A DNA stretch of 64,000 nucleotides from Rugalucina vietnamica (lineage: Eukaryota > Mollusca > Bivalvia > Lucinida > Lucinidae). This document shows, piece after piece, positions 14,501 through 52,045 of this stretch. Location: the NCBI GenBank assembly GCA_964017185.1, contig OZ024884.1, positions 19,252,048 through 19,316,047 on the forward strand, given 5' to 3'. Both the position numbers and the translations under genes were made by a program. The notes below the pieces were generated by a model. The model saw nothing but the letters and a program-made list of their open reading frames with translations. It was not told the origin of the DNA and did no database searches. The stretch's first letter is position 1. Each line of letters opens with the position of its first letter.

Positions 14501-17500
14501 ACTCTTGCATCACTTTTTGTTTCAGTAGAAGCTTATTTTTGTTGTTGTATCTACTAAGTAGTTTGCTTAAAGCTAATAGTGTGATTTGTTGTTTTTATTT
14601 CATTTTTCAGCTTTAAATGTTAAAATTTCATTTCCTGACATCTTTCAGATATAATATTTTCATATAATTGTTATTGGATCAAGTGTTTGTTCATTTTCCA
14701 CAAAATGTCAGGGTTTAAAATTCCTTTGACCAATTCTCATTTCATTCATACGATGAAGAGGCTGAATAATAAGCTCTATGCTTGCCAGTAGGTGGTGAGA
14801 CATTTTCAGCACAGTTGAACTTGAAGAATTCGGAACAGATTTTTTTCCTCTAAAATCTATGGGATGTCATTTTGTCCTTTGTATTCTTGGCATTTTAAGA
14901 ATAGAATTTGAGCTATCATTCTATTTATATCTAGTTTTAAGCATCTATGTGACATGGAGGATAATAATACTATCTTTATCTCATTGCAGGCGTTTATGTG
15001 ATGAGGAAGATGAACTCAGTGAAGTTGAACCTGATGCCGTCCCGACGGAGGTGCGGGATTGGTTAGCGCTCACGTTCACCCGCTCAATGAGCAATGTCAA
15101 ACGGAGAGGAGAGGAGAAGCCCAAGTTTCGCAGTGTGGCAAATGCAATACGGGCGGGTATTATGGTAGATAGGTAAGTACAGTATGTAGGAGAACAGTTT
15201 TGTTATGATAAAGAAACAAACATAGCCAAAGAATTTGGGATCATTTCAGTTACATTCAAAACCTGCTTTCCTATTTAAGTGTATCATAAAAACTTTTGCG
15301 TAAAATACAGCCAATAATCAGTCCTAGGAAATTGCATTTTAAGATATTTGTTGCAGGTTTGTAAATTTATGCAGACAGAAAGTTCAATAATGATTTATCA
15401 GCAAAATATGTTTTAATTGCAATACAGAACTCCAAACTATGAGAATCTTTTCACATACATATTAATTCAATTTTCAGGATATATCGTAGATTATCGAGTA
15501 CGACTGGTTTAAATGTACCTCCTCATGTTCTTCTTATCCTCAAGGTACGTAACTCTTGCTGGATTTTTATTCCCTAAAATAAGGCTTTATACCAAGGATT
15601 TCCTTTACACTACTACTTAACTATTCTAGTAACTAGTAATTCCTAAAATACCTGATCAGTTTTAGAAAATCTATGAATCACCGGATATGGTAATGAGAAA
15701 GATGCTGCTGTACTATTTGACAGTTTGCCCAACAGAAATCTGCATATGATTTTTGGTTTACCAGGACTTCAAAAAGGATCAGTGTTCCCTCCAACCATTG
15801 TACTATATTAATGAATTTCTGTAAAAATAATATAACAAAAGTGAAAATAACATCTTTTCTTTCCATGGTCTAGGGAGTTTTGAAATCCACAATTTTTGTT
15901 TTTCACACATTTATTTTTGACCATTTTTCATTTCAGCATTTGGATGATTGGACTTTCAATGTGTTTTCTGTGAATAGTGCCTCTGATGGACACGCCTTGA
16001 AATACGTTGGTTATGAATTGTTGCAAAAGTATGACTTAATAACAAAGTTCAAAATCAGTAATAATCACTTGGACAATTTTCTGCTTCAACTGGAAGTTGG
16101 ATATAGCAAATACAAGAACCCGTATCACAACCTCGCCCACGGAGCAGATGTCACACAAACAGTTCACACTATCTTGTCGCAAAGCAAGCTGGTGGTAAGT
16201 ACTAAGCTTGGTGACATTTCATTCATGATAGTTGATATTAAATGATCATGCAAAGTTATAATTCATTTTTGTTGAAACTCTAAAACTCTGGGAGGCAGTT
16301 CTAACATGTAACAGGGCACAATCAGTGTCTTGAGCAAAAATATTGAAAATAAAACATAACATGAAAATATATATTTTTTTTTTCCCAATAAAATTTTTTA
16401 TTTTTAAAGCTGAAAAAATCTCTGTATATTGCATGGGCAAGTTTTCTTAATGCGTAACATATAATTTCTGTTTTGAGTAAACTTTTCTTTACCATTTCAG
16501 AACTGGTTGACAGACCTAGAAGTATTTGCAACTATTCTGGCAGCTCTTATACATGACTATGAACACACAGGGACAACCAACAACTTTCATATTCAAACTT
16601 CGTAAGTAACACTTCTAAAAGTTTATTACATGGCCCTCTTCCTTTCTCATTAATATCATCATTGTTTCTAAAAGAACAAAGTTTGAACTTTATTTCTAAA
16701 GTCTGATGCATAAGTAAAGATAAATCATCAGTTCCTTCATATGTAGATCTAATAGAGGGAAAAACATGAGTCAATAGCTCCCTGTCTGTTTTGTATCGAA
16801 GAGTACCCATAATTAATCCTCATATCTGGCACTTAAATAGTTTATATTATCGTTCATCTGTGTGTCATATTTTGCCAGGTCGGAGGTAGCGTTGTTGTAT
16901 AATGACAGGGCAGTGTTAGAGAACCACCACATCAGTGCAGCCTTCCGACTGATGCAAAGTGAAGAACACAATATACTGGCCAATCTTAGCAAAGAAGAAT
17001 ACAGGTAACTTGTTATTTGTTATCCGAGTCGACTTTGTGAAGTTTAAGTAAATTTTCTTCATTTTGTATTACTTAACATGTCACCATCCTGGCACTAAAT
17101 GGCTAGATTAATGAATGTGGCCTATAAATACCCATGATGCAACCAAATTTTGTTATGTAGAATGATGCAACATCACACAATACATGACAAAATGGAGTGT
17201 GGTGATTGGAAGCCAGATCAATTTGGCAACAACATACAGAGAAGAGTTCATTGCCTCCCTGTAGGTTGTTACTACCCATTTGATTCTGCTTTCAGTTTTG
17301 TCAAGTGACGTTATGTTGCATCCATCTGTGTCATTAGAAATTTGGTTCCATTTGGGGTAAACCTTTTCAAAGGTTTTCTGAGCATTATCACAGGATATAT
17401 AATTATATATGACACTTAATTTGAAGAACTTAGAAATAAATCAACTACATGTATTTGGATATCTATTGTATGCCTGCCATACATTATCTGTGTTGCTCTC

Positions 17501-20500
17501 TGATAATAAAACACCAGAATTTTGAATGCTTGTACTCAGATTATTTTCTATTTCTATGGGTCAAAGTCTTCATGTTTTTATAATGGTCCATGTTTCAGAC
17601 AGTTGAGGAGATATGTAATTGAAATGGTCCTAGCCACGGACATGTCTGTCCATTTTGCACTCTGCAGGGACATGAAAGTTTGCCTTCAAACAATGGATTG
17701 GGAAGAGTATGTTACATAATGCCAATAGCATTAAAAATGTTACTGTTAAAATGTTTTAGGTCAAGTTTATTATGGCCTTTTGTTTTGTTATATATTTCAT
17801 GTTTTTGTTTGTTCATGTTTTCAGAATTTGCCGGCAATACTATGAACACTGAATTTATAACAAAATTTCTTGAAATAGGGAAAATAGGAAATAGACAGAG
17901 TCATAGGAAAAACAAGAAAAAAAAAACAGAATCTTAGGAAAAATAGGAAAAAGACAGAAAAAGCTTTCTAAACAAGAAACAAAAATGAAAAAATATGTAA
18001 AAGAAATGTATAATGTACCAAAGTTCAAAGTCACATGATTTTGAATTTGATTGTTTTCATACTATTGCCTGTATTTGGTATACTGTAAATTTCCAATGAG
18101 CATGGACTATCATTGTAAAAAGTTTCATTGATAAGACTTCACTTGTAAGATGCTGACCAATCAATTTACACAAAGTGTCTTAAATTAGAACATTTACCCT
18201 TTGTGATTCAGCATGGTCAAGGCAAAGAAAAAAAAGAAGTAAACAACATGAAATTATTATATATCAATTTTATTTGCATATTTTCACTTTCTTTAGGTAT
18301 GTATAAAGTTTATTTGAGGAAGTTTGTTTTGATTTGGATTTCTAGTGTTCTCTGGTTATCATATTTCCATGTATAGAGTTATAATTATGAAGACAAACAA
18401 CAGATTTTTCTGTGCACTGATACTGTAAGTATCCAAGTGACAGTATTGATTTTTCTTCTACACTGACTGACTGACTGACTACAGTTTGAAAAAACAGGTA
18501 AATTCGTTTGTCCACGCTCATTGGAAATTAACAGTATTTTTTTAGTTTTCAACAAGTTTCACTGCTGTTTAAGTTTCTGTTACACCGTTACTTTCAGAGA
18601 GTTCCGAAACTTAGTGATTGATATGGTGCTCGCGACTGATATGTCCTACCATTTCCAACAGATCAAAAACATGAAGAACCTCCTCAGCATGCCTGAAAAG
18701 TAGGTTTTAATGTATCAGTATTGTAATTTTCTGTAACATATGTAATCTTTCTTAAGTAACATATGTAACCTATTTCATGTAATATATAATCTTTCCCCTA
18801 CCCTCTATTGTAAATATATAATCAGTTATTGTAAACAATTTGGTGTTGTATTTTAGTCATATACTTTACGACAACATAAGAATTTTCTGTAACATATGTA
18901 TTCTTTCTTATAATACGTAGCATATCAGTTGTAATCTTTTATATGCAACATAATATGTAATCCCTCTTTAGTAACACAGGTAATTTTTGTAACATATATA
19001 CTCATCCTTATGTAACGTACTGTAAGTTCGGAAATTTTTTCATGACTTTTATTCAGTGATTTTTCTCCTTCGGAATCATTAGTGATTTCTTGAATTTGCA
19101 AATGAGTTCATTTTTAGTTTAGCTTGTAGTTACTCTTTATTAGCTAGGAGACAACAAATTTTGCAAATATTAGCAAAAAATAAGTTCTCATGATTAATTA
19201 CGAATTTACAGTATGTAATCTTTATCCTACCCTGTATTATAAACATGTGATTAGTCTTTATAAACTACTCAATGTTGTATAAATATGTCATTTAATAGTA
19301 CATGTATGTAATCTTTACTATTACTGTATATGTGTACTATATTAGACTGCTTCAAAAGTTACTTTGCAAGATATTTGCTTTGCAGTTGTAGTTGTAATCA
19401 GTCATTTACAAAATTAATCAGATGTGATTAAGCTTGATTATGAAGATGTATCATTGCTGCTCCTGAATATTTTACTAAGTGCTGTTCCAGAAAAAAAGAA
19501 CAAAGACAGTGTGTTTGAAGGTGCTTATTAGATTCAGCCTCAGTGATATTCAGTTTTCTTGAGAGAATCTCATGAGAAACACAATCTTGGAATAGCCTGT
19601 TACATTAAATGAACAAATAGTGGTTTATTTATTTTCATTCTCTATTTTGGAGGAGGGAGTCAATTAGCTCATTGAAGACTTTTGCATATCAGAGTCAAAG
19701 TAAATCATCATTCCCGGGAAATTCTAGGTATTGCAATGTAAGCAACTGACGCTATGCTCTAACTTCCCTGATGCCACTTATATGGGTTCTTGTTATTCAA
19801 AGCAGTTTTGCCAGAATGTTTGCTTCCTTCAAAAGTTTTGTTAAAAAAAAACACTTGCTTTTTAAGATTGATTGCTTCCTTCTATGGATAAAGAAAATAC
19901 ACACTTATTAGGCCAGTTTTTTTTAATAATTTGGTTTTCAGGAATTTTTTCAAAAATTTGGGGTAGGAGGAGGTAAAAAAAAAAAAAAAAAGTCAGCATT
20001 CCAGTTTAACATCTGAAATTTAGCGTTTACTAACTCTTGGCTAAGTACTGTGTGTTTAAAATATTCAGTCTTTCATGGTTTATACTGCATTTAGTTTTAC
20101 CCGGAATAAACCTTTTAACCTAAAATAATTGTTTTCGTTTTTGTGTCATACCTGATTGGAAATCTTAAATAGTACAGGGCAGTCTCGCTATAAAGCACAT
20201 TGAATTAATGCGGTGTTGGATATAATGCGAGGGTGCCTTGGATCCCAAATTTTCGCCCACCCGCTTATATATATATATAAAATAAAATAAAAAAAAGATC
20301 ACGGAAAAAAAATTGTGGCGATGCCAAAGCGCCGTTTTACCCTTATATCCTATATTGTGTTTCAGTTTATAAGTGTTTATTTGCAGGTGAATTCGCTGAT
20401 AAAAAGATCGTTTGCAGGGCATTCGCCAAGGTTGAGTTTTCTTTCAGTTTCCCTTTATCATATAAAAAAAAGAAAGAAAGAAAGAAAAACAAGATCGATC

Positions 20501-23500
20501 GTCAGGCATTCGCCAAGGTGCAATTTTCTTAAAGTTTCTCTTTATGGTATTATGAGAACAATTAATGTTAATTATCTTTTGTGCATTCAAAACTGAAAGA
20601 TCACATTTCTAATAGAAAGCATAGTGTGTGTACGAACCGTGCCGGCTGGGAATCTCTCAAGAAAAGGAGGATGGATAATCGACACATTGCTTTACAAAGG
20701 TCTGAAGGGTAAAGCCAGAACACATACAGATGACCTTATCCCCAAGACTAGGCTTTGTACAAATAATCACTCCATGGCATTTCAGCTACCATAGAGGCCT
20801 ATAATGTACAGTGGCGGATTTAGAGGGGGTTCAAGGGGTTCGCTCGAACCCCCCTCTGGAGCCAAATTATTTCATTTTCATGGGGAATTTCAAGAAATTT
20901 TGTGTGCATTTAGGCAAACGAACCCCCCATTTCTACATTTGAACCCCCTCTTGAGAAATCCTGGATCCGCCCCTGATGTAGGTTCTTACCCCAGACTATC
21001 AGGGACTGGAATGACCTCACTGACTCTATGTTTTCCACTGCTGAAATGTCAGATGATTATGTGTGTCCAAGTTTGCTTCCCTCGTGCATTCTATGAATTA
21101 ATTTCTCCCCCATCCGAACCCCCTGGTGAAATAATGTCATTTGACGTGTCACCAGTCAACTATTCAGATAAATAGGCATGCTTAATTTTTTTTTAGGTAG
21201 GGCCATAATTTTGGTCTATGCCTTAAAAAATGTGGCCATGGATAAAACCATGATCCAAACTGCGAAGATTAAACAACTCACCATGGTTAATCTGACAAGG
21301 CATATTGTTTGACTATGACGAGCAATGATCAGTTGAGGGTTCACTGAGTGATCATATTTAGAAGCCACAGTAGCTTGTCATTCTGGGGCTCTGCGGTATT
21401 CTCGACAGTGGATGTGGGCATTGCATGTATTTATTGCGGAAATTAGCCTGGCCATTGTCATTCAAGCCGATCTTTGGCATCTTATAGTGCGATGAACAGC
21501 TTGTGGTTTCCTACTTTCGTTTCGGAAGCGTGTAAGATGTAACGGAAAAATTGATTGGTCAAAAGCCAGAAGTAAAATTACAGTCTACCAATGAAAACCG
21601 AGAAAAGAAATCGATCGATTTTACATTTCTTTGCGCATGTCTAATGGCACATTTGTTTAATAAGGACGGCGTAAGCATCTGTGCGGCGTACAATGATAAA
21701 AGCAGGTACCGCCGGCCGGAATGTCGGAACGTCACCGAAAAATAAAAATTAAAAAATTCAATTTTATTTTTTTCCATTTTGCGTGAAATTACGGTCGGCG
21801 GAACGGAAAACCGATAAATTAAAAAATACTGGCCTTATGTATTCTGGAAAATGTGGCTATAAATTGGGTCAGTTTTCTGCACTGTGAAACCGAAATGCAG
21901 TAGTCATGACCTCTTGGCAGGTCTATAGGGCATTACAGACATACACATCAGTAAAGCATGTCAGTGAAAAGTTTACCCCCTTAAACCCCACTTTTATATA
22001 GTAAAATTGGGGTTTGCAGGGATATACCTATTTTTCTTATTTTTGCTCCAAAACAGAGGCGGTTCTAATGTGCGGTTCTAACAATCTATGTTTTGAGCAA
22101 AAATAAGAAAAATATCAAAAATTTTCGTCTGAAAATTATCGATTTTTGACCTGAAAAAATTACTGTATATCATATGGGCATGTTTTCGTAATGGAATGCT
22201 TTGAATAAAGAGGTCCCAAATAATAAATGATTGCTTCACAGTAGGATTAAATTAATACACAATTATCATGGCTTTACGCTTAAAGCTTTTATTTTTTTCT
22301 CACTTTTCATTTATGTTTTAGCAAAGCTAGTAAAAATATGTTGTGTTCACTGTTTGATTAACAAGTTGTTTGCTAAGCATTGTCATGGTTTTGAAGCTTG
22401 CCTGGACAGAAGCTTATTTTGCAGGAAATTACCCTTTATCTTCACATATCTTGGCATTTTTGTCAGACATTTTTAAAATGTCTGAATAATTCATACATAT
22501 TAATTTTGTCAGTAGACCAACACTTTTTGTGAAGTCTGACCTGTAGACCGACATTTTGTGTTCTAACTAAACCATGCCTTTGTTTTAATTTTCATTGCTT
22601 ATCATTTCACTTTTAATTGCTGTTTGATTTTAAATTTCACCATGTTTTCTTAGCAAAACATTTTGTAATTGAGAAAATGTCAAACAAAAGTATAATTGGC
22701 TTCTGTCAGTGAGGGATAGTTTGTTTCTTCATATTAAAAGCCTAGCAGTGTTGTTGTTGTTTGAAAATTCTAATTACAAATGTAGCTAACATGTACATGC
22801 ATATGATGTTTAAGTGTTCTGTAGCTACTTGCAGCTAAGTGGCTTTGTACAGCTAGGTGTACAGCCAGTTTGCAGCTAGTCGTACAGTCTTTTTGATTAA
22901 TAGTAGAAAATTGTGCTATTGACTGACTGTTATTGAATATTGTAGACAATGCAAGTATGAAATTAACATGCACAGTAACTGTGAACCTGACTTGATACAA
23001 AAAAGCACAACACCCAAGTCTTGTTTAGTTGCAATCCGAAAGATATCATTCATGCATGATAAAGTTTAACCAAAAACTTTTTTGGGTGAGGAGCACAGTG
23101 GCTCAGTGGTAGAGCTTCAGACTTGGGATGGAGAGGCAGGTCAGAGGTTTGAATTTCACAGATTGTGTCCTTGACACATTAATTCTCCAATGTCCTGATA
23201 AATTTCCAGAAGAGTTGATTCCATCCAAATGACTTGGACATAAAATAAACTCACTTAGTTTGTAAGTAAACCCTTTGCCTTTTATCAGGCATTTGATTTT
23301 CAAGCTGAGTTGAGTTTCCACCTGAACCTGGTCCAAAACAAGGCTCATTCAAGCAGTGTTTCATATCTTACAATATCATTTCAGCATAGACAAGCCAAAG
23401 GCATTGTCACTGGTGTTACATTGTGCTGATATCAGTCACCCTGCCAAGGACTGGGACATCCATAAACGATGGACAGACCTCTTGTTAGAGGAGTTCTTTA

Positions 23501-26500
23501 GACAGGTAAACATTGTCATTGCTGTAAGATTGTCTGGTTACACTGTCACTGGTGTTACATTGTCACTGCTGTCATGTGGTCACTGCTGTTATATTGTCAG
23601 CAATGTAACATTTTCACCAGCATTACATTGTCACTGGTGTTACATAGTCACTGGTGTTACATCATCACTGGTGTAACATTGTCACTTGTGTAACATTGTC
23701 ACTGGTGTTACATAGTCACTGGTGTAACACTGTCACTGGCATTACATTGTCACTGGTGTTACAATCATAGTCGCTGGTGTTGCATTGCCACTGATGTTAT
23801 ATTGTCACTGGTTTTACATTGTCATTAGTTTTGCTTTGTCAGTGGTGTTACATTGTCACCTGTTTTATATCATCACTTGTGTTACCTTGTCACTAAGGTG
23901 TTACTTTATCACTAAGGTGTTACCTTGTCACTAAGGCATTACATTGTCACTAAGGTGTTACATTTTCACTCAGATGTTACATTGTCACCAATGTTCCATT
24001 TTCACTGGTGTTTCATTGTCACTTGTGTTTCATCGTCACTTGTGTTTCCTTGTCACTAAGATGTCACATTGTCACCAAGGTGCTACATTGTCACCAGTGT
24101 TCCATTTTCGCTGGTGTTCCATAGTCACTTTTGTTACATTGTCACTTGTGTTACATTGTTACTGTTTTTATATTGTCATTTATGGTGTTACATTGTCACT
24201 TGTATGACATTGTCACTGGTGTTGCATTGACAAAATTTTAGGTAATTGTATTGAAAGTTTCATTGTGGGAGATTTATGTGAGAAAACTGTGTTTTATAGC
24301 CAAAAATATGGGGGAGCTATAAAAGAAAATTTTCACAATGTAATTATGACAATGTTACAGCTCTGGAAAGGAAAATATAATTTCTGACTTCAACTTGCTC
24401 AGAACAAAGTACAATTTCCCACAAAATAATTGTGCTGAGTAAAAACTGTTTGTTGAGCAATCATAATGGCTTTGCATTATGACTGACTTTCTGATAGTAA
24501 ATCACAGAAATATACAATCGCAGGTTTTGATATCCAAGCAGAGGTCACATCATGTTAAATTTGCATGTGTAGCAAATTATAATGCTGCATTTCATGTGAT
24601 GGAAAAATGCTGTGGTCTGGTCAGCTTCTTGTAGCTTCCTCTGTCATAAAACTGGTATATGGAATATAGACAAGATTAATGAAAAATATTTTACATGTCA
24701 TTACTTCTAGTCTGACCAAGTTTTCTGCACTGCTTGGTTAGAGTTGATTTGTCTGACTACACAATAAAAATGATTGACTATGTTCTCATGTGTTCAGTCA
24801 GGGATAATTATGAACTCACTGATTGTCTGCCAAGGAATGTGATCCTCTTGTCCAGCACATTTCTTTCATGAAGGTTTGGTCAGAAAATATTTCTACAGCC
24901 AATTTTATCGCTCTTCCACTGAATAAAGAAGAGCATTTTGTCAGTTACTGGTGAAATAAATCATTATAAATGTGCACTAAGTAATGATAACTTACCCTGG
25001 GAGGCTGTGTCTATCCTGACGTGACATTAGCTGTTAACAATGGACATAAAGTAATAGATCAAACAAACAAACAAAACAAAATGCAAGTTCTTTGAAACGA
25101 GTCAAGAAAAGTTTCAGAAAAACTTTATTTTTGTCCTTTCAGGGAGACCGTGAGCAAGAATTAGGACTTCCATTTTCCCCGCTCTGTGATAGAAAAAATA
25201 CTCTGGTTGCTGAGTCGCAAATAGGTAAGGATACCATCTTTCTGCCTTAAGAATTTGGAGAGGCTATCCCACAGAATAATGTTGAGACGCAGTCAGAAAT
25301 GCAGAGATCCAGCGGCCATTTTCATGTGCATATGAGTTCCAAATAAGGTTTCATTGGGAGCTAGCTGATGGCATAATCTTGAGAGCATCAGACTGGACTG
25401 GATTTTAACCCAACTGACACCAGATAGTCATAGAGTAAGACACCTTGATTACCCAGGCTTTGACCCAATATGACTGAAAAAAAGTTGACTATGAAGATAA
25501 ACCACAAAACAAAATAAAAAATTCTTATGTTTCTTGTTTAATAAAACCTTACAAAGCATAAGTTGTAATATTTTAGGTAAGGAATATTGACATAAGAGAA
25601 CTAAAAAAACAACAAAAAATGATATGAATTACGTGACAATTCCATAAAGGACACTTCAAAACAAGGAACTCAACATTTTTTTTTTTTCAGAAAACAAGAC
25701 TTTTAAATTTTGATTTTTTTTTTCCAGGTTTCATTGACTTTATCGTCGAGCCTAGTTTCCAGGTGATGGGTGACATGTTGGACAAGATCCTGTGTCCCCT
25801 CCGTAGTTCCTCCAGTCATGCAGTCGACGAGGCCATCTCAGAAGAGGTGTTTGACAAGGAGACAACCACCCGCGGTACCTCAGCTGGAAAGAGTTTAGCT
25901 AAACCGGTCACACCTAGTAAGTGACTACAAATCATATCTTTATAGAATAAGTATGTAATGGGGACCTTTTGGAAATTTTTAATAGAAGCCTGTGGGGTCA
26001 TGGTTAAGCTTCTGGCCTTGTAAAACAGGCTCGTTCTCAGGCATCTCAGGTCTTTAGGATGAGTCTTTAAACAGAGGTCCCCTCTCCATATGACCTTAGC
26101 TGTCAAAGTGGACCATAATCACCAAATCAAACTACCAACTGTTAGGATATATATATATAGCATTCAAAGTTTGAAAACACAAACTGTTGAATGTATGAAC
26201 TGATTTCAATTCACGCAATATGACAGAAACAATGTTCTTCTTCATGCATAGCCCTGGGTCCCGTGCACTTTGCTCCGGGTGCTATGAGGTCAAAAACCCT
26301 ACAGCTACGGGCACAAAAGAAAAAGAAAAATGTACAAATAACAGTATTATGCCATTTGACACTTGCATAAAGAAATGTTTTTGTGAAAAAAATAATTTTT
26401 GTGGTAACCAATTACACTATGTGGGGTGTATTTGATAAGCATTGTTTATTGAGTCTTTTTCATTGATAACTGTTATCTGTTTCAGCGTCATCCAAGTCCG

Positions 26501-29500
26501 AACTGTGTGTACGACCTTGGGTAGATTGCCTCAGCAATAACAAAGTACAGTGGAAAGCAATAGCAGTCAAAGGTACAAAACAGATTTTTCTTTTCTTCGT
26601 GAATCCTTGCCACATTGTACTTGGGGTCTAGGAGCTCTGCTAAAGCTTTCCATTCTCGTAAGAATTAGATCCATGATTTATCATCGAATTTCGGAGCACG
26701 GTGGTAAAGTGGTTTAGCATCTGACATAAAACTGAATCAAGAGGTCCTGGGTTCGATCACCACAAGTGACACCGTGTTGTGTCTTTGAGCATACTTCTTA
26801 AAGTACTGGTTTTAAAATACCCAAGTAGTGATGGCTCCGCCCCGACATCACTGACAAATTGTTGACTGGGACATTTAACAAACAAGTCATCAAATTTCCA
26901 AAATTGCCTTCTTCTATGGATTCAAAAGGAAAAGTTGTCAATTACTGATGGAAAAATGGGCACAAAGTTCTGGTAAACTGTCCATAGAAGCTTGCGGGCC
27001 AGGAGCAAAGTGGCAAAGTAATTGATCAGCACATGATCGTGATCATTTTTACATGTCATATACACTATATTTGTGAGAACAGCAGACTCCAAATCAAGAG
27101 GTCCTGGGTTCCATCCCAACTTGCGGCACCATGTTGTGTCCTTGAGCAACCCACATTAACTCCCCAGAGTACTAGTTAATACCCAGGAATCGGAGGCTTG
27201 GTCCCGACATGACTGAACAATTGTTGACTGGGATGTTAAACCTGAAAACAAACACAGAAATAATTATCCATAGAAATTATGAAACCCTTTCATCTATATT
27301 TAAACTTTCTGTCACTCCTCCAGATGCAGAAGAACGAAAGAAGAATGAAGAAGCTGAAGGACAATCAAATGAGGCCTCGGACAAAAAGCCCGAGCCCGAG
27401 AAAAAACCTGCTGATAATAAGAGTGCTCCGAAAGGTAACTGACGTCGCTGCGATGACCTGTAGCGACGACGTCGGTCGATGTTCTGTTGTCTGGATACCC
27501 GTTTCTTCGTCTTGTGTTAGGATGGGAACCAATCACTCTGATCTGATGCATGGCTTAATCTTCTTGCAAAAAAACTCAATCTACTCCGTGATTTCTGCAT
27601 CAGTCTTGTCTTCTGATGTAAAGGGGAAACCAGTCTATTATTGACATACATCTGCTACTTCTTCCTGCAGTATATATTGTACACAGTGAATCTGGGAACC
27701 AGTAAAATCTATTGACGTCTGCTACAACTCTTTCTGTGTGTACATCATACTACTTTTTTCAGTAGGTTAGATTATTTCTGAGAAGTTAAAGTCAGCCTAG
27801 AATCAAACAAAAAAAAAAGCAACAAAATGTTACAAAAAAAAAAACAACAACAAAACACAACAGATTCCAGTATGGAAAAGGAGCATAAAGATTTTCAGTT
27901 TTGAAAAGTGTAGTATCTTGTATGCAGTGCTACTGGGAAACACTCTGTTGACGTCTGCTAAAACTCTCTGTCTCTGCATTATATATTGTGAAAAGTGACA
28001 CTCTACGCACCTCTTGTTTATGGAAAGTATGTAATGATTGTTGCATGGGCATCATACAAGCCACAATGAGTGGCCTAAACCGATTTTCTGGATTTTCCGA
28101 CCAGGTCTGACAAAAACCAGCCTGTGCAGTTTCAGGAGAAGGCTAGAAGCTTGAAATTCATGATATAGAAAGAAGAGGAATTGTACTATCAGTGAAGCAA
28201 AAGCAAAGGCGATGATCAGATCTGTGTCTTTGTTTTTGCACATGCAAAAAGCTGTTTTTCTCATTGTGAGATTGTGTCAGGCTCATATGATTTTCGGGGT
28301 AGGAGACAGGGGGTGGGTGGAAGGTAAAGCATCTGAAAAAGACGTGAAAAAGTGTAGGTAAACATCAAATACTTTCTGTAAACAAGAGCAAAATAATCTA
28401 TGGGTAAACAGGAACTGTCCATGCTCTTCCAAAACTGCTATAGTTTATGACTGCAGGTATTACTGATTTCTTTTGAGTGAGTACAGAGACATTGTATATA
28501 GATGGTGATTGACATTATATTAACATTAACCAATTTATTTTCTTAAGCAATTTATTTTTGCAAATTTCAAGAGAAATAATAATTTGTGAAAATAAATTGC
28601 CTAAAAAATGTCATATTATTCATTGTTCTTGAATTGGCCAATTTTTCAGGTCATGAATGTAAAATGTGGCAAAAATATGCATTAAGACATTGAGAGAAAA
28701 TTTCATAGTTGGAAAATAAATAAGTCTGGTTGCAGTAGATCTACTGAGTACAAACAAACAAACAAATCAAAATCATTGATGCAAGACCAAGGACCATCCT
28801 TACTCAAAAGAAATCACTAAAATTTGCAGGTCCAATATAGTGCTTTAGATCTGAGGTTAAGAATAGATAGGGCTATTGAATGTTGTTGATATTAGTGATT
28901 ACATACATGTGATAAGGCATTGTTATGACTGTTACTGTTAAACATGTTAAATTTTATCTTAAATGTTTTATAGTTCTCAAAATCAAAGCTTTAGGTCTCC
29001 ACATTATTTTTAGCATATCCTGTAGATGTATGAAGATATTATATTTCTGAGCCATTTTAACTCTGTTTTCAGGGGTGGGTTAATTGTAATCTGTAATCTT
29101 AAAACAGCTGTAATTGATTACAAACTTTGGAAGTAATCGACTGTTATCAATAATCACACATTTGAGCTGTCTGGTGGGAAAACCAACAATGTGGTTTCCG
29201 AACAGGTCCGACACAAACCGGGCTGTACAAGCACAGACAGAAGATGGCTTGAGACTGGAAATTTTGGATTTAGAAAGTAAAGGAATTGTACTATCTGTGT
29301 AGCGAAAACAAAGGCGTGATCAGCTTCGCGGTTACCGCGAAGCTGATCTGCGTCTTTGTTTTCGCATATGCAGATTGTTGGTTTTCCCATGGGGCGGCTC
29401 ATTTTTTCTGATGGTGATGTAATTAAATTTAATCAATTGCATCAAAAAAGTCATCAATACATTCTGGTTACATTTTGATGGACCATAAGAGGATTTGTGC

Positions 29501-35500: not shown

Positions 35501-37371
35501 GTTTTCCTGATGGGTGGTTTGAATTTCAGAACCTTCAGACTAGCAATGTCTGTTTGGGTAATTCAAAGAAATTGCTGTTTTGTCCCTCTTTCCTGGTTAA
35601 AACTGGCTCCTATAGCCTACAGTTATAAAATCACTTGCATCAATGTCCCTTATAGGAAAAATGTTCTCCGTGTTTACCAATAGCTTTATATTTGAGCCGC
35701 CTCATGGGAAAACCAACAATCTGCATAGGCGAAAACAAAAGAAGCAGATCAGCTTCGCGGTAACCGCAAAGCTGATCAGCGCCTATGTTTTAGCTACACG
35801 GATAGTACAATTCCTCTTCTACTTAGATCCAAAATTTCAAGCTTCTAGCTATTTTCTGTGCTTGTACAGGCCGGTTTTGTGCCGGACCTGTTCGGAAACC
35901 ACATCGCTGGTTTTCCCACAAGGCGGCTCATTTGATGAGATAGGAAGATTAATGCAAGTGATTTTTTTTTCTCTCAAAACCCCTGCATGCATATTGTATG
36001 GTCCTCACTTGTGAATCCAGTGAGCAAACTCTTTGCACCGACTGATCTACTGCTTCTCAAATATCTTATTTACATCTATCATGGATATGTGATTGTTAAA
36101 TGATGAGCCTGGTGGTGTAGTGGTAGAGTGTTACTGACTTCAAATCTAGTGAGAGATCATTGCTGGGTTAGAAGGAAACTTGAGCAAGACTTGTACCACC
36201 AACATTACGAAAACATGCCCATGCAATATACAGAGATTTCTTTAGCTTCAAAAATTGAAAATTTCAGCAGATTTTTTTTTTAATATTTTTCTTATTTTTG
36301 CTCAAAACATAGATTGTGGGTACACGTTAGAACCGCCTCGCCGAGGCGGTTCTAACGAGTACCCACAATCTATGTTTTGGAGCAAAAATAAGAAAAATAG
36401 GTATACCCCTGCATACCCCAGTTTTGCTATGTAAAAGTGGGGTATGAGGGGGTAAATATTGCACGGACATGTTTTCCTGATGCAGAAAAGGCTCTGTCCT
36501 GGCAAATTGTGGACTCTGGAGTAGGAGGCTCAGGAATTGATACAATTGAGCCGCCCCATGGGAAAACCAACAATGTGGTTTCCGAACAGGTCCGACACAA
36601 ACCGGCCTGTACAAGCACAGAAAAGAGCTAGAAGCTTGAAATTGTGGAGTTAAGTAGAGGAGGAATTGTACTATCCGAGTAGCGAAAACAAAGGCGCTGA
36701 TCAGCTTCGCGGTTACCGCGAAGCTGATCTGCGCCTTTGTTTTCGCATATGCAAATTGTTGGTTTTCCCATGAGGCGGCTCAATTAATATTAAAATCCCA
36801 ACCCAGGCACCAGCCTTAAACCAAAACTGATTTTGGATTTGTATTTATTACCACTAAATTTTTCGTTTAATTTTCACAAAAAATTCCTGATTCAAATAAA
36901 TTTTAAACACTTAATGCATATTGTACATGTAAGTAATTTAACCCATGGATCTACATAAGATTAAAAGTATTTGTTTAATGGGCTGCAATGTCATTAAGTT
37001 TTCATTTAGCTGTTTTTTCAAAAAAGTAAAGAAACAATAAATAAAGTGAAGAACAAAAAGGATGTATCTAAAAAGAAGACCTTTCAATTTCAGTTGGGGT
37101 ATCACGGCAAACGTCAACGACTGGCCTACCGAGGATCGACAGCCGTGGCAACATCATAGTGAACCGCCAGACATCCACGACAAGTCTCCCGATACAGACG
37201 TTACAGTCTCGGACCACTTCTACAACAGGGCTTATCAACCGAGGCTTTGGGGTGAGGTCACGAATAGTTGAGAAGGTGTCAACTGGGTCAGATGCGGGGC
37301 AGAATCTGTTGTTAGATTCTGAATCTGATTCGGACATGGACATTGATGCTTTAGCTAGTAGTGAAATATGA
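8374..37371 (+). CDS. PDE1: PDE1-type Ca2+/calmodulin-dependent 3',5'-cyclic nucleotide phosphodiesterase (spliced gene, 5' end missing)
   Basis: PDE1 enzymes hydrolyse cAMP and/or cGMP in the cytosol and are activated by Ca2+/calmodulin. Fourteen exon positions, each bounded by AG...GT and with matching phases, translate to 665 residues plus a stop. The order is a Ser-rich N-terminal piece, a helical inhibitory segment ending VYIDETR, a catalytic domain (from about EVRDWL), then an acidic/Lys-rich and Ser/Thr-rich tail. Catalytic hallmarks seen are NPYHNLAHGADV, IHDYEHTGTTNNFH, VLATDMSxHF, LHCADISHP and SQIGFIDFIVEP. The start codon and the first calmodulin-binding exon(s) are not visible in 1-8373 and are probably upstream. 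The tail is longer than in vertebrate PDE1 as I recall it. Family assignment is very secure; the subtype A/B/C of vertebrates does not apply. Confidence 0.95.
8555..9114 (+). other. PDE1 intron 1
   Basis: A degenerate SINE-like fragment at about 8813-8900 has an A-box-like TTTGTCTAGTGGTAGAGATT but a poor B box. Nothing else is recognisable. It ends in a T-rich tract and TTTTTCAG. Confidence 0.6.
9115..9228 (+). CDS. PDE1: PDE1 exon 2, inhibitory/helical segment
   Basis: Acceptor TTTTTCAG and donor AAG|GTAATA. It encodes LRHILRKLQKEEVSKDDLQK followed by NLEYAAQVLETVYIDET and the first two bases of Arg. This is the conserved PDE1 segment just before the catalytic domain (vertebrate YAA.VLE.VYIDETRRL). 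Phase 2 at both ends permits in-frame insertion of the candidate exons at 11650 and 13868. Confidence 0.93.
11085..11290 (+). mobile_element. tRNA-headed SINE (TGACTGAAAAATTG family)
   Basis: The A-box-like GTGGCGTAGTGGTAGAGCG and GTCCTGGGTTGGATTC regions are followed by the body GTGTGTCCTTGAGCAAGAC, then CCGGACATGACTGAAAAATTG and GGGACGTTAAGCC, with a short A/C-rich tail (AACAAACAAGC). Relatives in the window are at 26697, 26996, 34670 and 53222. Confidence 0.75.
11650..11727 (+). CDS. Candidate PDE1 cassette exon, 26 codons
   Basis: A good acceptor (TTTTGTTTTCAG) precedes an open stretch encoding PKDFAENEVIEIPFNELSGK and AKKTL. A weak donor AAG|GTTACC follows. Both ends are phase 2, so inclusion between exons 2 and 3 would keep frame and insert 26 residues after YIDET. 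No homology is known to me. The weak donor and lack of family support make this tentative. Confidence 0.35.
13069..13273. mobile_element. MITE with TACTGTAA ends
   Basis: Inverted ends are TAACTGTAAGTTCAAAAAT on the left and ATTTTTGAATTTACAGTA on the right, with TA at both borders. The interior is non-coding. The terminal octamer is shared with the elements at 18081-18536 and 19018-19213. Confidence 0.55.
13868..13942 (+). CDS. Candidate PDE1 cassette exon encoding a 25-residue Cys-rich insert
   Basis: A long pyrimidine tract (about 13831-13866, ending CTCTTAG) precedes an open stretch of exactly 75 nt that ends ACAAG|GTATCA. Both ends are phase 2, matching exons 2 and 3. It encodes CRECLAVYANGAPTCRCKCK then TDET, and the last bases (GATGAAACAAG) repeat the end of exon 2 exactly. 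Inclusion would place five cysteines in the linker between the autoinhibitory segment and the catalytic domain. Splice sites, phase and open frame support it; no transcript evidence is available. Confidence 0.65.
14990..15172 (+). CDS. PDE1: PDE1 exon 3, start of catalytic region
   Basis: Acceptor TCATTGCAG and donor AG|GTAAGT. It encodes RLCDEEDELSEVEPDAVPTE, then VRDWLALTFTRSMSNVK and EEKPKFRSVANAIRAG. These match the PDE1 blocks DEDELS...VP.EVRDWLA.TFTR and EEKPKFRS almost position by position. It ends in phase 2. Confidence 0.95.
15478..15544 (+). CDS. PDE1: PDE1 exon 4
   Basis: Acceptor TTTTCAG and donor AAG|GTACGT. It encodes IYRRLSSTTGLNVPPHVLLI then LK, corresponding to the vertebrate RMYRK...YPAAVIVTLK stretch. 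It ends in phase 0. Confidence 0.9.
15937..16194 (+). CDS. PDE1: PDE1 exon 5, catalytic core with YHN motif
   Basis: Acceptor TTTCATTTCAG and donor GTG|GTAAGT, 86 codons. It encodes HLDDWTFNVFSVNSASDGHA, a central part (YELLQKYDLITKFKI) and EVGYSKYKNPYHNLAHGADV. By family knowledge, the His of YHN is the general acid and the His four residues later is a metal ligand. The Lys-Tyr-Lys-Asn-Pro-Tyr-His run is a near-universal class I PDE signature. Confidence 0.96.
16501..16601 (+). CDS. PDE1: PDE1 exon 6, HD motif
   Basis: Acceptor TACCATTTCAG and donor TC|GTAAGT. It encodes NWLTDLEVFATILAALIHDY then EHTGTTNNFHIQT. The HD pair binds both divalent metals in this family, and EHTGTTN is invariant in PDE1. 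It ends in phase 2. A remnant of element family B (about 16310-16456) sits in the intron just before it. Confidence 0.96.
16879..17004 (+). CDS. PDE1: PDE1 exon 7
   Basis: Acceptor TTTTGCCAG and donor CAG|GTAACT. It encodes EVALLYNDRAVLENHHISAA then FRLMQSEEHNILANLSKEEY. LYNDR.VLENHH is a PDE1 signature. It ends in phase 2 (AG), so the next exon must start with one base completing Arg. Both following alternatives start with A and do so. Confidence 0.95.
17599..17706 (+). CDS. PDE1: PDE1 exon 8a, alternative form
   Basis: Acceptor CATGTTTCAG and donor AAGA|GTATGT, 108 nt. It encodes RQLRRYVIEMVLATDMSVHF then ALCRDMKVCLQTMDWE. It aligns with exon 8b over its length (about 17 identical of 35 positions, including MVLATDMS and HF) and has the same phases at both ends, so either can join exon 7 to exon 9. 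Codons for the shared MVLATDMS differ at synonymous sites, which argues against a recent copy. The second half departs from usual PDE1 and adds two residues and two cysteines. It is probably one of a mutually exclusive pair. Confidence 0.82.
18081..18536. mobile_element. MITE between the two alternative exons
   Basis: Near-perfect terminal inverted repeats: TACTGTAAATTTCCAATGAG at the left, and its inverse CTCATTGGAAATTAACAGTA at the right. The arms extend further inward (GAGCATGGAC / GTCCACGCTC). TA occurs at both borders. A TGAC tetranucleotide run lies at about 18465-18480. No coding is seen. Confidence 0.7.
18598..18699 (+). CDS. PDE1: PDE1 exon 8b, canonical form
   Basis: Acceptor TTACTTTCAG and donor GAAAA|GTAGGT, 102 nt. 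It encodes REFRNLVIDMVLATDMSYHF then QQIKNMKNLLSMPEN, close to the vertebrate PDE1 block (RNLVIEMVL.TDMS.HFQQIKN.......PE). It has the same phases as exon 8a. This is the form expected from family conservation. Confidence 0.93.
18715..19340 (+). repeat. AT-rich degenerate repeat and TACTGTAA MITE
   Basis: Loose repeats of GTAACATATGTAATCTTT cover much of 18725-19010 and 19210-19330. Between them, 19018-19213 is an element with ends TACTGTAAGTTCGGAAA and CGAATTTACAGTA. It is non-coding. Confidence 0.5.
20640..21060 (+). pseudogene. Decayed non-LTR reverse transcriptase C-terminal tail
   Basis: In shifting frames the stretch reads WESLKKRRMDNRHIALQ, then DDLIPKTRLCTNNHSMAFQL, then FLPQTIRDWNDLTDSM. 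These resemble the end of LINE ORF2 proteins, where a conserved (S/T)FFPRTIRDWN-like motif occurs. At least one stop and frame changes break it, and a MITE (20809-20975) splits it before the FLPQTIRDWN part. It is a dead fragment. Confidence 0.6.
20809..20975. mobile_element. Small MITE with CAGTGGCGGAT ends and ATGTA target duplication
   Basis: The left end CAGTGGCGGATTTAGAG is mirrored by CTGGATCCGCCCCTG at the right. ATGTA at 20804-20808 is repeated at 20976-20980. Ends of the CAG.GGCGGAT.CAG type are common in hAT-like MITEs of animals (established knowledge; family not verified). Removing it restores continuity of the flanking reverse-transcriptase relic. Confidence 0.75.
21946..22194 (-). 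mobile_element. Family B hairpin MITE, copy 1
   Basis: Family B is about 270 bp. Its ends resemble CATCAGGAAAACATGTCCGT and CATTACGAAAACATGCCCAT in inverse orientation. The inner arms TTTTTCTTATTTTTGCTCCA and AAAACATAGATTGTGGGTAC meet their inverse across a short GC-rich centre (CCGCCTCGCCGAGGCGG in good copies). Here the centre has been altered to GAGGCGGTTCTAATGTGCGG. No coding. Confidence 0.7.
23088..23195 (+). mobile_element. SINE fragment
   Basis: An A-box-like GTGGCTCAGTGGTAGAGCTT and a B-box-like AGGTTTGAATTTC are followed by TGTGTCCTTGACACATTAAT. The tail is lost. It lies about 0.2 kb before PDE1 exon 9. Confidence 0.6.
23385..23505 (+). CDS. PDE1: PDE1 exon 9, metal-binding Asp
   Basis: Acceptor CATTTCAG and donor CAG|GTAAAC. 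It encodes IDKPKALSLVLHCADISHPA then KDWDIHKRWTDLLLEEFFRQ. The Asp of CADISHP is the fourth protein metal ligand in this family. Its first base completes Asn (after exon 8b) or Asp (after exon 8a). Bases 23402-23424 (coding for ALSLVLHC) match the unit of the minisatellite in the following intron. Confidence 0.96.
23509..24236 (+). repeat. Intronic minisatellite, unit about 17 bp
   Basis: About 0.7 kb of diverged tandem units CATTGTCACTGGTGTTA, roughly forty copies, begins just after the donor of PDE1 exon 9. Variants include CATAGTCAC and CATTTTCAC, and an expanded CACTAAGGTGTTA subset lies at about 23890-23960. Confidence 0.9.
24240..25142 (+). other. PDE1 intron 9, remainder
   Basis: Mostly unremarkable AT-rich sequence. 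The last part (about 24900-25080) resembles a SINE tail (CAGTTACTGGTGAAATAAA, then GACATAAAGTAATAGATCAA and an ACAAACAAACAAAAC tail). Confidence 0.45.
25143..25224 (+). CDS. PDE1: PDE1 exon 10
   Basis: Acceptor CCTTTCAG and donor ATAG|GTAAGG. It encodes GDREQELGLPFSPLCDRKNT then LVAESQI and the first base of Gly. GD.E.ELGLP.SPLCDR is a class signature. The Gln of SQIG is the invariant glutamine that hydrogen-bonds the purine in PDEs. Confidence 0.96.
25225..25727 (+). other. PDE1 intron 10
   Basis: A degenerate SINE is at about 25360-25515 (AACCCAACTGACACC, GACCCAATATGACTGAAAAA, then an A-rich tail). A long T-tract precedes the acceptor. Confidence 0.5.
25728..25916 (+). CDS. PDE1: PDE1 exon 11, end of catalytic domain
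   Basis: Acceptor TTTTTCCAG and donor CCTA|GTAAGT. It encodes FIDFIVEPSFQVMGDMLDKI, LCPLRSSSSHAVDEAISEEV and a Thr/Lys-rich end (TTTRGTSAGKSLAKPVTP). FIDFIVEP holds the phenylalanine of the substrate clamp. The domain ends within this exon and the rest is variable linker. Confidence 0.94.
25990..26130 (+). mobile_element. SINE 3' part
   Basis: It contains TCTTTAGGATGAGTCTTTAAA, GAGGTCCCCTCTCCATATGA and CCTTAGCTGTCAAAGTGGAC. This is the same body as the SINE at 33226-33611. Confidence 0.55.
26486..26572 (+). CDS. PDE1: PDE1 exon 12
   Basis: Acceptor CTGTTTCAG and donor AAAG|GTACAA. It encodes SSKSELCVRPWVDCLSNNKV then QWKAIAVK. This corresponds to the last conserved PDE1 helix (vertebrate LVDIIQQNKERWKELAAQ). 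Phase 1 at both ends. Confidence 0.9.
26697..26885 (+). mobile_element. SINE
   Basis: It has GGTCCTGGGTTCGATCACCA (B box), GTTGTGTCTTTGAGC, CCCCGACATCACTGACAAAT and TGTTGACTGGGACATTTAAC. Same family as 11085. Confidence 0.7.
26996..27260 (+). mobile_element. SINE with internal insertion
   Basis: Head (GGGCCAGGAGCAAAGTGGCA) and B-box part (GGTCCTGGGTTCCATCCC) are separated by about 60 extra bases. The body has GTTGTGTCCTTGAGCAA and CCCGACATGACTGAACAATT. It ends about 60 bp before PDE1 exon 13. Confidence 0.65.
27324..27434 (+). CDS. PDE1: PDE1 exon 13, charged tail
   Basis: Acceptor CACTCCTCCAG and donor AAAG|GTAACT. It encodes AEERKKNEEAEGQSNEASDK and KPEPEKKPADNKSAPK, a Lys/Glu/Pro-rich disordered tail. 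If the donor is not used, two more codons (Gly-Asn) and a stop at 27440-27442 follow, giving a shorter protein. Phase 1 at its end fits exon 14. Confidence 0.85.
28068..28272 (-). mobile_element. Family A MITE, copy 3 (degenerate)
   Basis: Reverse-oriented: GGATTTTCCGACCAGGTCTG, then GCTAGAAGCTTGAAATT and AGAGGAATTGTACTATC. The palindrome is reduced to GATGATCAGATCTGTGTC. Confidence 0.6.
29163..29401 (-). mobile_element. Family A MITE, copy 4
   Basis: Well-preserved reverse copy, with the full palindrome CTTCGCGGTTACCGCGAAG at about 29324-29342. TTT lies beside both ends. Confidence 0.85.
29535..29800 (-). mobile_element. Family B MITE, copy 2
   Basis: Both ends (CATCAGGAAAACATTTCCGT / GGGCATGTTTTCGTAATG) and the centre CCGCCTCGGCAAGGCGG are intact. 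Confidence 0.8.
30722..31000 (+). mobile_element. Family B MITE, copy 3
   Basis: Full-length, with ends CATTACGAAAACATGCCCAT and GGACATGTTTTCCTGATG. The centre is CCGCCTCGCCGAGGTGATT, with one arm changed. Confidence 0.8.
31111..31326. mobile_element. Family C MITE, copy 1
   Basis: Ends are GGGCCCAAATTTATAAAACT and TTTATAACCTCGGAGCC (inverted). Inner inverted segments are TGCTGTTGACTCGCTGTTGGCA with TTTTAACA on either side. A better-kept copy is at 33257-33495. Confidence 0.65.
31737..31829. repeat. Hairpin repeat (AAGTATTTAGCAAAAC family), copy 3
   Basis: Left arm TTGCAAAAGTATTTAGCAAA and right arm GTTTTGCTAAATACTTATGC surround ACAAGCTTTCTTTCCTGTC. It is the same hairpin as the pair at 5283-5527. 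Confidence 0.6.
32244..32472 (+). mobile_element. Family D element with long GC-rich hairpin, copy 1
   Basis: Ends are TTAACTCATTTAAGCC and, inverse, TTAACCCATATTTGACG. At 32284-32350 a hairpin of about 30-bp arms reads GCAAACAGAATAGCCCCAGA ... TCTGGGGCTATTCTGTTTGC with the apex GACGCCGCAGAACGCGGCGTC. The second part is unpaired (AATCACTCCTGATGC). Confidence 0.75.
33226..33611 (+). mobile_element. SINE split by a family C MITE
   Basis: The tRNA-like head CTCCATGGCCTAGTGGTTAA continues after the insertion with the B box AGTTCGATTCCTGGC, then CTTTTGGATGAGACTTCAAA and GAGTGGGACGTAAAGC. The split lies at CCAGG, which is duplicated around the insertion. Confidence 0.8.
33257..33495. mobile_element. 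Family C MITE, copy 2, inserted in a SINE
   Basis: Arms of about 40 bp (CCCGAGGTTATAAAACTTTT... / ...AAAAGTTTTATAACCTCGGG) also include CTCAACTCAGCTGAG and its inverse. The flanks CCAGG at 33252-33256 and 33496-33500 are a 5-bp target duplication. An internal hairpin reads TGCCAACAACTGTTGGCA. Confidence 0.82.
34464..34637 (+). repeat. 29-bp tandem repeat, six units
   Basis: Six head-to-tail units of CATAATGCAGCTAAGATGTC plus TATACATTT span exactly 174 bp. The only variation noticed is one A-to-T (AAGTTGTC) in the fifth unit. The homogeneity suggests recent expansion. Confidence 0.95.
34670..35065 (+). mobile_element. SINE split by a family D element
   Basis: The head GTGACCTATTGGTAGAGCTT and B-box part GGGATTCAGACCCC precede the break. 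After 34983 the body resumes with AAAATAGCTGAAAAATTGTT and GACTGGGTTGTAAGACC. Confidence 0.7.
34752..34983 (+). mobile_element. Family D element, copy 2
   Basis: It has the same hairpin as copy 1 (CAGCCCCAGATGTGACGCC ... GGCGTCCCATCTGGGGCT) and the same end AAATATGGGTTAA. It is inserted in the SINE at 34670-35065. Confidence 0.75.
35260..35512 (+). mobile_element. Family B MITE, copy 4 (degenerate)
   Basis: The outer ends are kept (ACATGTCCATGCAATATACA / GGACATGTTTTCCTGATG), but the centre has decayed to CCCCCTCACCAAACAAG. Confidence 0.65.
35693..35930 (+). mobile_element. Family A MITE, copy 5
   Basis: Near-consensus ends TGAGCCGCCTCATGGG and CACAAGGCGGCTCA. The palindrome has one mismatch (CGGTAACCGCAAAG). 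Confidence 0.85.
36109..36200 (+). mobile_element. SINE head fragment
   Basis: GGTGGTGTAGTGGTAGAGTG with a short body (AAACTTGAGCAAGAC). It is cut off directly before the family B copy at 36203. Confidence 0.5.
36203..36482 (+). mobile_element. Family B MITE, copy 5 (best preserved)
   Basis: The arms are almost perfectly complementary, with the centre CCGCCTCGCCGAGGCGG at about 36332-36348. Confidence 0.88.
36547..36782 (-). mobile_element. Family A MITE, copy 6
   Basis: Consensus-like reverse copy with a perfect palindrome at about 36706-36724. CAAT and ATTA flank it. Confidence 0.88.
37094..37371 (+). CDS. PDE1: PDE1 exon 14, terminal coding exon
   Basis: Acceptor TTTCAATTTCAG; stop TGA at 37369-37371. 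It encodes 92 codons including the stop: GVSRQTSTTGLPRID, VNRQTSTTSLPIQTL, SRTTSTTGLINRGFG, and an acidic end (DSESDSDMDIDALASSEI). The Arg-x-Thr-Ser-Thr-Thr repeats sit in basic surroundings and look like possible kinase sites (inference). Frame continuity with exon 13 (phase 1) and a clean stop support it as the normal end. Confidence 0.85.
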
Positions 37372-43466: not shown

Positions 43467-43709
43467 TGAGCCACCCTGTGGGAAATTTTTAAACCAACAA
43501 TCTGCATAGGCGAAAACAAAGGCGCAGATCAGCTTCGCGGTAACCGCGAAGCTGATCAGCGCCTTTGTTTTCGCTATACGGACAGTACAATTCCTCTTCT
43601 ACTTAAATCCAAAATTTCAAGTTTCTATCTCTTTTCTGTTACTGTGCAGGCCGGTTTGTGTCAGACCTGTTCGAAAACCACATTGTTGGTTTTCCCACGA
43701 GGAGGCTCA
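43467..43709 (+). mobile_element. Family A MITE, copy 7
   Basis: Left end TGAGCCACCCTGTGGGAA with a short insertion (ATTTTT) in the terminal repeat. The palindrome is perfect. Confidence 0.82.
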
Positions 43710-44096
43710 TATGAAATGTACATATGAAATTGTTTAATATGTTGTTAAGTTTAAGCCATCTGTTTATTTCAAAAAATGAAATTGACTGTGAAATAGGGCT
43801 TTAATGGAAATATTACAGGTATGTTCATAATGCGGGTGTCTTAAAGATTTCTCACAATATTACTCCTATTCCTATACTATCACCATTTTGCATTGTTTCT
43901 TTTTATAAAAAGTATGCTTTTGTGTAAAAATTCCATTAACAAATTTAAGAATCGGTTCAAAACAAAATATTCTTGCTAGCGTTCATGGTTTAGATTTTTA
44001 AAAAATGTAAGTTTTTTATGAAGATATTTAATTCCAGCTTTTGTTCAAGACTTAGACCTAAGTTAATATTTAAGAAATGAATTTCATTTTTCTAGT

Positions 44097-51801: not shown

Positions 51802-52045
51802 TGAGCCGCATCGCGCATCGTGAGAAAACCGGATTTTTGCCTAGGCGAAAACAAAGGCGCAGATCAGCTTCGCGGTAACCGCGAAGCTGATCAGCGCCTT
51901 TGTTTTCGCTACACGGATAGTACAATTTCTCTTCTACTTAAATCCGAAATTTCAAGCTTCTAGCTCTTTTCTGAGCTTGTACAGGCCGGTTTGTGTCAGA
52001 CCTGGTCGGAAACCCCGAAGACCGGTTTTCTCACGATGCGGCTCA
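51802..52045 (+). mobile_element. Family A MITE, copy 11 (GACCGG subfamily)
   Basis: Ends are TGAGCCGCATCG...GTGAGAAAACCGG and CCGGTTTTCTCACGATGCGG. GCATCG is duplicated at the left end. The palindrome is perfect. Confidence 0.85.

What the first reader, a model, noticed from the sequence alone, without database searches (positions are those of the whole stretch)
17599..18699. Probable mutually exclusive exon pair in the PDE1 catalytic domain
Exons 8a (17599-17706) and 8b (18598-18699) both encode a MVLATDMSxHF block, have the same phases, and each can join exon 7 to exon 9. About half the residues are identical, yet shared residues use different synonymous codons, so the duplication is old and both copies look selected. 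The second half of 8a (ALCRDMKVCLQTMDWE) is unlike normal PDE1 and longer by two residues. In other PDEs the TDM region borders the substrate pocket, so swapping this helix could change substrate preference or regulation. The functional effect is inference.
Basis: partly seen in the sequence, partly recalled or inferred. Interest (0 to 1): 0.85.

Follow-up and report, generated by a model that had tools for sequence, protein, structure and literature searches.

The report
Duplicated catalytic exon in PDE1 gene
In this animal's gene for a calcium-controlled enzyme that destroys cAMP and cGMP, one exon of the catalytic core is present in two old and very different but intact versions, so the animal can probably build two forms of the enzyme by choosing one or the other; this is a known kind of gene design at a place where we found no earlier report of it.

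Summary
A PDE1-type gene lies on the + strand, and its exon for the TDM helix exists twice in tandem: 8a (17599-17706, 108 nt) and 8b (18598-18699, 102 nt). Both have AG/GT splice sites and the same phases, and each alone passes the Pfam PDEase_I cut-off. They share 18 of 34 aligned residues; synonymous sites are saturated (pS 0.83) but amino-acid change is limited (pN 0.33). Neutral simulations never reproduced this (0 of 20,000 at each of five rates). 8b is the canonical PDE1 exon. 8a keeps the active-site half, has a divergent second half, and is two residues longer in a loop whose length varies between PDE families.

Best reading: an old tandem exon duplication spliced as alternatives, giving two PDE1 isoforms. 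'Mutually exclusive' is inferred: all four inclusion patterns stay in frame and the 891-nt intron is too long for steric exclusion, so only the fold argues for it. A changed substrate preference is weakly supported, since the pocket Met336 equivalent and its motif are identical. Tuning of surface, stability or autoinhibition fits better. No RNA or related animal genome was available. New member of a known kind.

The parts
14990..15172 (+). PDE1 exon 5 with PDEase_I_N domain; 15051-15077 encodes V..WL..TF, the spacing of PDE1B inhibitory-helix residues V97, W100, L101, T104, F105
   Evidence: PF08499, 108 bits; residue list from PMC12610503; place counted by hand
15478..15544 (+). PDE1 exon (5b in this report)
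15937..16194 (+). PDE1 catalytic-domain exon 6
16501..16601 (+). PDE1 exon (6b) with the HDYEH motif
16879..17004 (+). exon 7, upstream partner; ends in AG| of the shared codon
17599..17706 (+). exon 8a, divergent duplicate of the TDM-helix exon (36 residues)
18080..18537 (+). inverted-repeat element in the 8a-8b intron: 28-nt arms, 93% complementary; probably a MITE
18598..18699 (+). exon 8b, canonical PDE1 TDM-helix exon (34 residues)
23385..23505 (+). exon 9, downstream partner with the ADISHP motif
25143..25224 (+). exon 10
25728..25916 (+). exon 11, end of the catalytic domain

Best explanation
Exon 8 of a PDE1 gene was duplicated in tandem long ago. Both copies have been kept by selection and are spliced as alternatives, one per mRNA, giving two PDE1 isoforms. 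They share the active-site motif (MVLATDMSxHF) but differ in the second half of the TDM helix and in the following loop. Shown: intact paired exons, matching phases, past purifying selection, PDE1 context. Inferred: that one and only one is used per mRNA, since a doubled or missing core helix should not fold. Most likely effect, inferred: the swap leaves the substrate pocket as it is and tunes second-shell packing, surface contacts or stability, and through these catalytic rate or Ca2+/calmodulin autoinhibition, in particular cells or conditions.
For: Gene model with AG/GT sites and continuous frame. PF00233 and PF08499 matches; PDE1B is the best PDB match, E 2.5e-126 for the 8b form. 18 of 34 identity, saturated synonymous sites (16 of 19.3) and pN 0.33. 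Simulation 0 of 20,000 at each of 5 rates. Rough donor scores: 8a is below all 8 other exons compared and 8b below 7 of 8, as regulated exons often are. Met336 lies in the shared TDM motif; the numbering fits all 11 PDE1B residues checked, 10 of them besides Met336 itself. In humans the MXEs with known structure lie inside folded domains, unlike cassette exons (PMC5740500 section 7).
Against: No transcript evidence. Joint inclusion or joint skipping keeps frame, so nonsense-mediated decay does not enforce exclusivity. The 8a-8b intron is 891 nt; branch-point-like sites lie within 40 nt of both acceptors and AG exclusion zones are ordinary, 30 and 22 nt. Complementarity between the flanking introns is at chance level (11, 10 and 5 of 30 shuffles reach it). 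8a has the lowest donor score of the ten exons (rank 82 of 704 GT sites), though exon 6b, presumed constitutive, is nearly as low at rank 76. No relative with an 8a exon could be examined: searches found none, in collections without animal genomes.
Confidence: 0.74

Rival explanations
1. 8a is a real alternative exon but not mutually exclusive: it is sometimes added together with 8b, or both are skipped, making inactive or dominant-negative forms.
For: All combinations stay in frame; no device for exclusion was found. PDE7A3, which lacks part of the catalytic domain, is a described PDE form (PMC13095499 passages).
Against: 8a keeps the catalytic motif and nearly the length of a replacement, as expected if it stands in for 8b. 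A doubled core helix is unlikely to fold (argument of PMC5740500).
Confidence: 0.12
2. 8a is a recently silenced exon: long functional in the past, no longer spliced.
For: Lowest donor score of the ten exons compared (3.44); second half has lost the PDE1 signature.
Against: No stop, frameshift or broken splice dinucleotide; Pfam match above cut-off. An exon silent for most of its history would not keep 53% identity at saturated synonymous sites, but a recent loss cannot be excluded.
Confidence: 0.1
3. The exon swap changes the substrate preference (cAMP against cGMP). This concerns the effect and can hold together with the best explanation.
For: Met336 of the TDM motif has a large calculated inhibitor binding energy in PDE1 (PMC13209513 passages); 8a is nearer to PDE4B, a cAMP enzyme, than 8b is (17 of 34 against 14 of 34 identical).
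Against: The TDM motif is identical in 8a and 8b. Of the seven residues listed with large calculated inhibitor energy, only Met336 falls in the PDE1B stretch 322-355 that matches this exon, and it does not change.
Confidence: 0.12
4. The inverted repeat at 18080-18537 is a splicing hairpin that controls the choice between 8a and 8b.
For: 28-nt arms; folding z-score -4.1, 0 of 100 shuffles fold as well.
Against: Its left arm begins with TACTGTAAA, an end sequence that recurs at two other places in the window, which fits a MITE. Looping it out still leaves over 400 nt between 8a and 8b.
Confidence: 0.07

Closest known systems
Tandem duplicated exon substitution / mutually exclusive exons (PMC9741552 and PMC9013439: passages; PMC5740500: passages and section 7)
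   Same: Homologous adjacent exons, same phase, encoding the same piece of a folded domain; old duplication; both held by selection.
   Different: In the two human surveys (PMC9741552, PMC5740500) the main texts contain neither 'PDE' nor 'phosphodiesterase' at a word start (supplements not read). Exclusivity here is not enforced by frame or steric distance, and no clear RNA structure for it was found.
Oyster alternative oxidase with duplicated exon 10 (PMC5589949, passages)
   Same: Mollusc enzyme gene with a tandem duplicated exon and alternative use; copies 63.5% alike in DNA in C. virginica.
   Different: That pair is terminal with stop codons and used through an alternative 3' site; this pair is internal, in frame, and more diverged (59 of 102 nt identical).
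PDE1 (PDE1B in the PDB: 5b25, 1taz, 4npv, 5uoy)
   Same: Catalytic domain and inhibitory-helix pattern; 8b form matches PDE1B at 424.5 bits.
   Different: A second version of the TDM-helix exon. The PDE1 section of PMC13095499 counts over 10 human isoforms and does not say which exons differ.

Membership tests
PDE1 family gene | Catalytic domain nearest to PDE1 | tested here: met
   8b form: PDE1B 424.5 bits, next family PDE4 246.7 bits
PDE1 family gene | N-terminal PDE1 regulatory domain and inhibitory helix | tested here: met
   PF08499 108 bits; V..WL..TF spacing equals PDE1B V97/W100/L101/T104/F105
PDE1 family gene | Ca2+/calmodulin activation | not testable with these tools
   needs an enzyme assay
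Mutually exclusive exons | Adjacent homologous exons with the same phase and AG/GT splice sites | tested here: met
Mutually exclusive exons | Both copies under protein-level selection | tested here: met
   pS 0.83, pN 0.33; simulation. One pair in one species; says nothing about very recent loss.
Mutually exclusive exons | One and only one copy in each mRNA | not testable with these tools
   no RNA-seq at hand
Mutually exclusive exons | A device that prevents joint inclusion: frame shift, U2/U12 clash, or too short intron (frequent, not obligatory) | tested here: not met
   in frame in all combinations; GT-AG sites throughout; 891-nt intron, ordinary AG exclusion zones. In humans 9% of clusters show steric and 0.79% U2/U12 conflict, 60% have lengths not divisible by three, so this does not exclude membership.
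Mutually exclusive exons | Competing docking/selector RNA structure (some members only) | tested here: inconclusive
   no complementarity between introns above shuffles; one species only, no covariation possible
MITE (18080-18537) | Terminal inverted repeats | tested here: met
   28-nt arms, 93% complementary
MITE (18080-18537) | Target-site duplication | tested here: inconclusive
   TA at both ends, but TA is its own complement and may be part of the arms
MITE (18080-18537) | Many copies in the genome | tested here: inconclusive
   the 22-nt arm sequence has no match in the window beyond the two arms, up to 3 mismatches; shorter end motif TACTGTAAA at 13273 and 19213 on the - strand; genome not held

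The most novel reading that the evidence does not exclude
A single PDE1 gene makes two catalytic cores that share the pocket but differ in the helix and loop behind it, giving cell types of this animal two PDE1 enzymes with different rate or Ca2+/calmodulin sensitivity. This would be regulation of a cyclic-nucleotide phosphodiesterase by exchange of a catalytic-domain exon instead of an N-terminal one.
Probability: 0.3. Interest if true: 0.55.

Novelty: new member of a known kind. Interest (0 to 1): 0.42.

Why it matters
Where the passages I saw say how PDE variants differ, they differ in N-terminal or regulatory parts or lack part of the catalytic domain. An old, selected exchange of a core helix would be a natural experiment on which parts of the catalytic domain tune the enzyme without touching the pocket, and could be tested with two recombinant proteins.

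Tried and rejected
Relatives: an 8a+9 peptide found none in viral contigs (17 pattern matches, none confirmed). The 3-row alignment A1 found none in genome contigs (34 matches, none confirmed) or viral contigs (56, none confirmed). No match in plasmids. These are viral, prokaryote and plasmid collections, so this says nothing about other animals. No whole genome is held for the window.

More copies: the six-frame scan found no third exon 8. tblastn of seven other exons (5, 6, 6b, 7, 9, 10, 11) against the window found no convincing second copy (best off-target E 0.005, exon 5 at 45397, 42% over 26 residues; next 0.017, exon 7 at 31765-31691; both taken as chance). Exons 5b, 12 and those upstream of exon 5 were not tested.

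Splicing mechanism: steric exclusion, distant branch point and frame shift were tested and not met. Intron complementarity is at chance.

Assembly artefact: no direct repeat joins the flanks of 8a and 8b in register (that tool misses copies under about 65% alike and did not list the exons themselves). With the exons only 58% alike in DNA, two collapsed alleles are unlikely.

Origin from PDE4: 8a is about equally near to PDE1B (19 of 35) and PDE4B (17 of 34), but its place and phase are those of PDE1's own exon and the stretch is too short for a tree; taken as divergence.

Rfam and tRNA scans of the window gave nothing. Paper searches for PDE or PDE1 with exon pairs: 1 paper; 97, 20 listed; 4; 2; 3; 14, 10 listed. 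No listed title reports such an exon; I opened one's (PMC12346295, passages) and three's (PMC9013439, PMC9741552, PMC5740500). The listings (12 of 55 and 15 of 17) served for other questions.

Full report
What is there. The + strand carries a PDE1-type gene. Exons read from the sequence join with continuous frame and AG/GT splice sites from 14990 to 27442; exons further upstream were not modelled. The product matches PF08499 (PDE1 N-terminal, 108 bits) and PF00233 (catalytic, 303.8 bits with 8a, 305.7 with 8b). Among solved structures PDE1B is best: 424.5 bits for the 8b form, next family PDE4 at 246.7. Five inhibitory-helix residues whose change abolished or substantially reduced activation in PDE1B (V97, W100, L101, T104, F105; PMC12610503, abstract, results and discussion read) are all present with the same spacing at 15051-15077. 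So the gene appears to encode a regulated PDE1.

The pair. Between exon 7 and exon 9 lie two homologous exons, 8a (17599-17706) and 8b (18598-18699), with the same phases. Either one gives a continuous protein. 8b alone matches PDE1B at 33.0 bits and PDE4B at 21.7. 8a alone matches PDE1B and PDE4-type chains almost equally (26.4 and up to 26.0 bits). Of the first 20 residues, which include MVLATDMSxHF, 14 are identical; of the remaining 14 aligned residues, 4 are. The two extra residues of 8a fall in the loop between the TDM helix and the ADISHP motif. That stretch varies in length among the PDB matches: query 2-77 covers 74 residues in PDE1B and 85 in PDE4, and query 1-77 covers 78 in PDE9.

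More than chance. 18 of 34 aligned residues are identical, 11 of the 18 with different codons. Of about 19.3 synonymous sites 16 differ (pS 0.83, saturated); of 82.7 non-synonymous sites 27 differ (pN 0.33). In neutral simulations from 8b (substitutions only, window base composition) at five levels, 0 of 20,000 each gave an open frame with at least 18 identities and at least 21 third-position differences. Both copies have therefore been held by selection for most of their history. This does not exclude a recent loss of one.

Is it mutually exclusive? Not shown. Lengths of 108 and 102 keep frame for 8a, 8b, both or neither. The intron between them is 891 nt. AG exclusion zones are 30 and 22 nt and branch-point-like sites lie within 40 nt of both acceptors. 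Complementarity between the three flanking introns is at shuffle level: 11, 10 and 5 of 30 shuffles reach the observed score. The one strong structure, 18080-18537 (z -4.1), looks like a MITE: 28-nt inverted arms, TA at each end (ambiguous, since TA is its own complement), and the TACTGTAAA end motif at two further places in the window. The arm sequence itself has no further match in the window. The case for exclusivity is structural. The exon encodes part of the folded catalytic core, where a double or missing helix is unlikely to be tolerated, and the human MXEs with known structure are of this sort (PMC5740500, section 7). That survey finds steric conflict in 9% and U2/U12 conflict in 0.79% of human clusters, but lengths not divisible by three in 60%, which is not the case here. 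By a rough matrix from memory the 8a donor is weaker than all 8 other donors compared and the 8b donor weaker than 7 of 8; exon 6b (3.50) is practically as weak as 8a (3.44).

What the swap would do. The PDE1B numbering of PMC13209513 (passages) fits all 11 residues checked on the PDE1B row, and puts the match of this exon at residues 322-355. The Met of TDM is Met336, one of seven residues with large calculated inhibitor energy in that paper. It is the only one of the seven in this exon and is the same in 8a and 8b. The changes lie mostly behind it and in the following loop. I therefore rank altered packing, surface contacts, stability or autoinhibition above altered substrate preference; all of this is inference, and no structure of either form was modelled.

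Known or new. Tandem duplicated exons are a well-known kind, and a duplicated exon used alternatively is published for an oyster oxidase (PMC5589949, passages). I found no report of one in PDE1 or in another PDE catalytic domain: searches (listings only in part for 18 and 48), and no mention of PDE in the main text of two human surveys (supplements not read). The library leaves out most subscription papers. No animal genomes or transcripts could be searched here, so age and spread of 8a are unknown beyond the saturated synonymous sites.

Noticed in passing
49234-49800, - strand: Last part of a Wnt gene (PF00110, 156 bits), on the other strand from the PDE1 gene.
   Followed up: partly
23537-24229: A tandem array of about 39.5 copies of a 17-nt unit, GTTACATTGTCACTGGT, starts 31 nt after exon 9. 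The coding sequence of exon 9 itself contains CATTGTCACTGGTGTTACATTGT, so the array may have grown out of exon 9.
   Followed up: partly
e.g. 36330-36779 -, 43510-43734 +, 51845-52114 +, 53492-53749 +, 62663-62866 -: A repeated element in several copies whose chance translation reads AKTKAQISFAVTAKLISAFVFATRIVQ or, in another frame, ENKDADQLRGNREADQRLCFRYSDSTIPLL and close variants; from memory, typical of bivalve genomes.
   Followed up: no
25913-25924 and 27324-27442: The exon 11 donor overlaps an in-frame stop (CCTAGTAAGTGA), so retention of the intron would end the protein there; splicing to 27324 adds a charged tail. Possible alternative C-termini.
   Followed up: partly
18717-19019: Degenerate direct repeats of TAACATATGTAATCTTTCTTA just downstream of exon 8b.
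   Followed up: no
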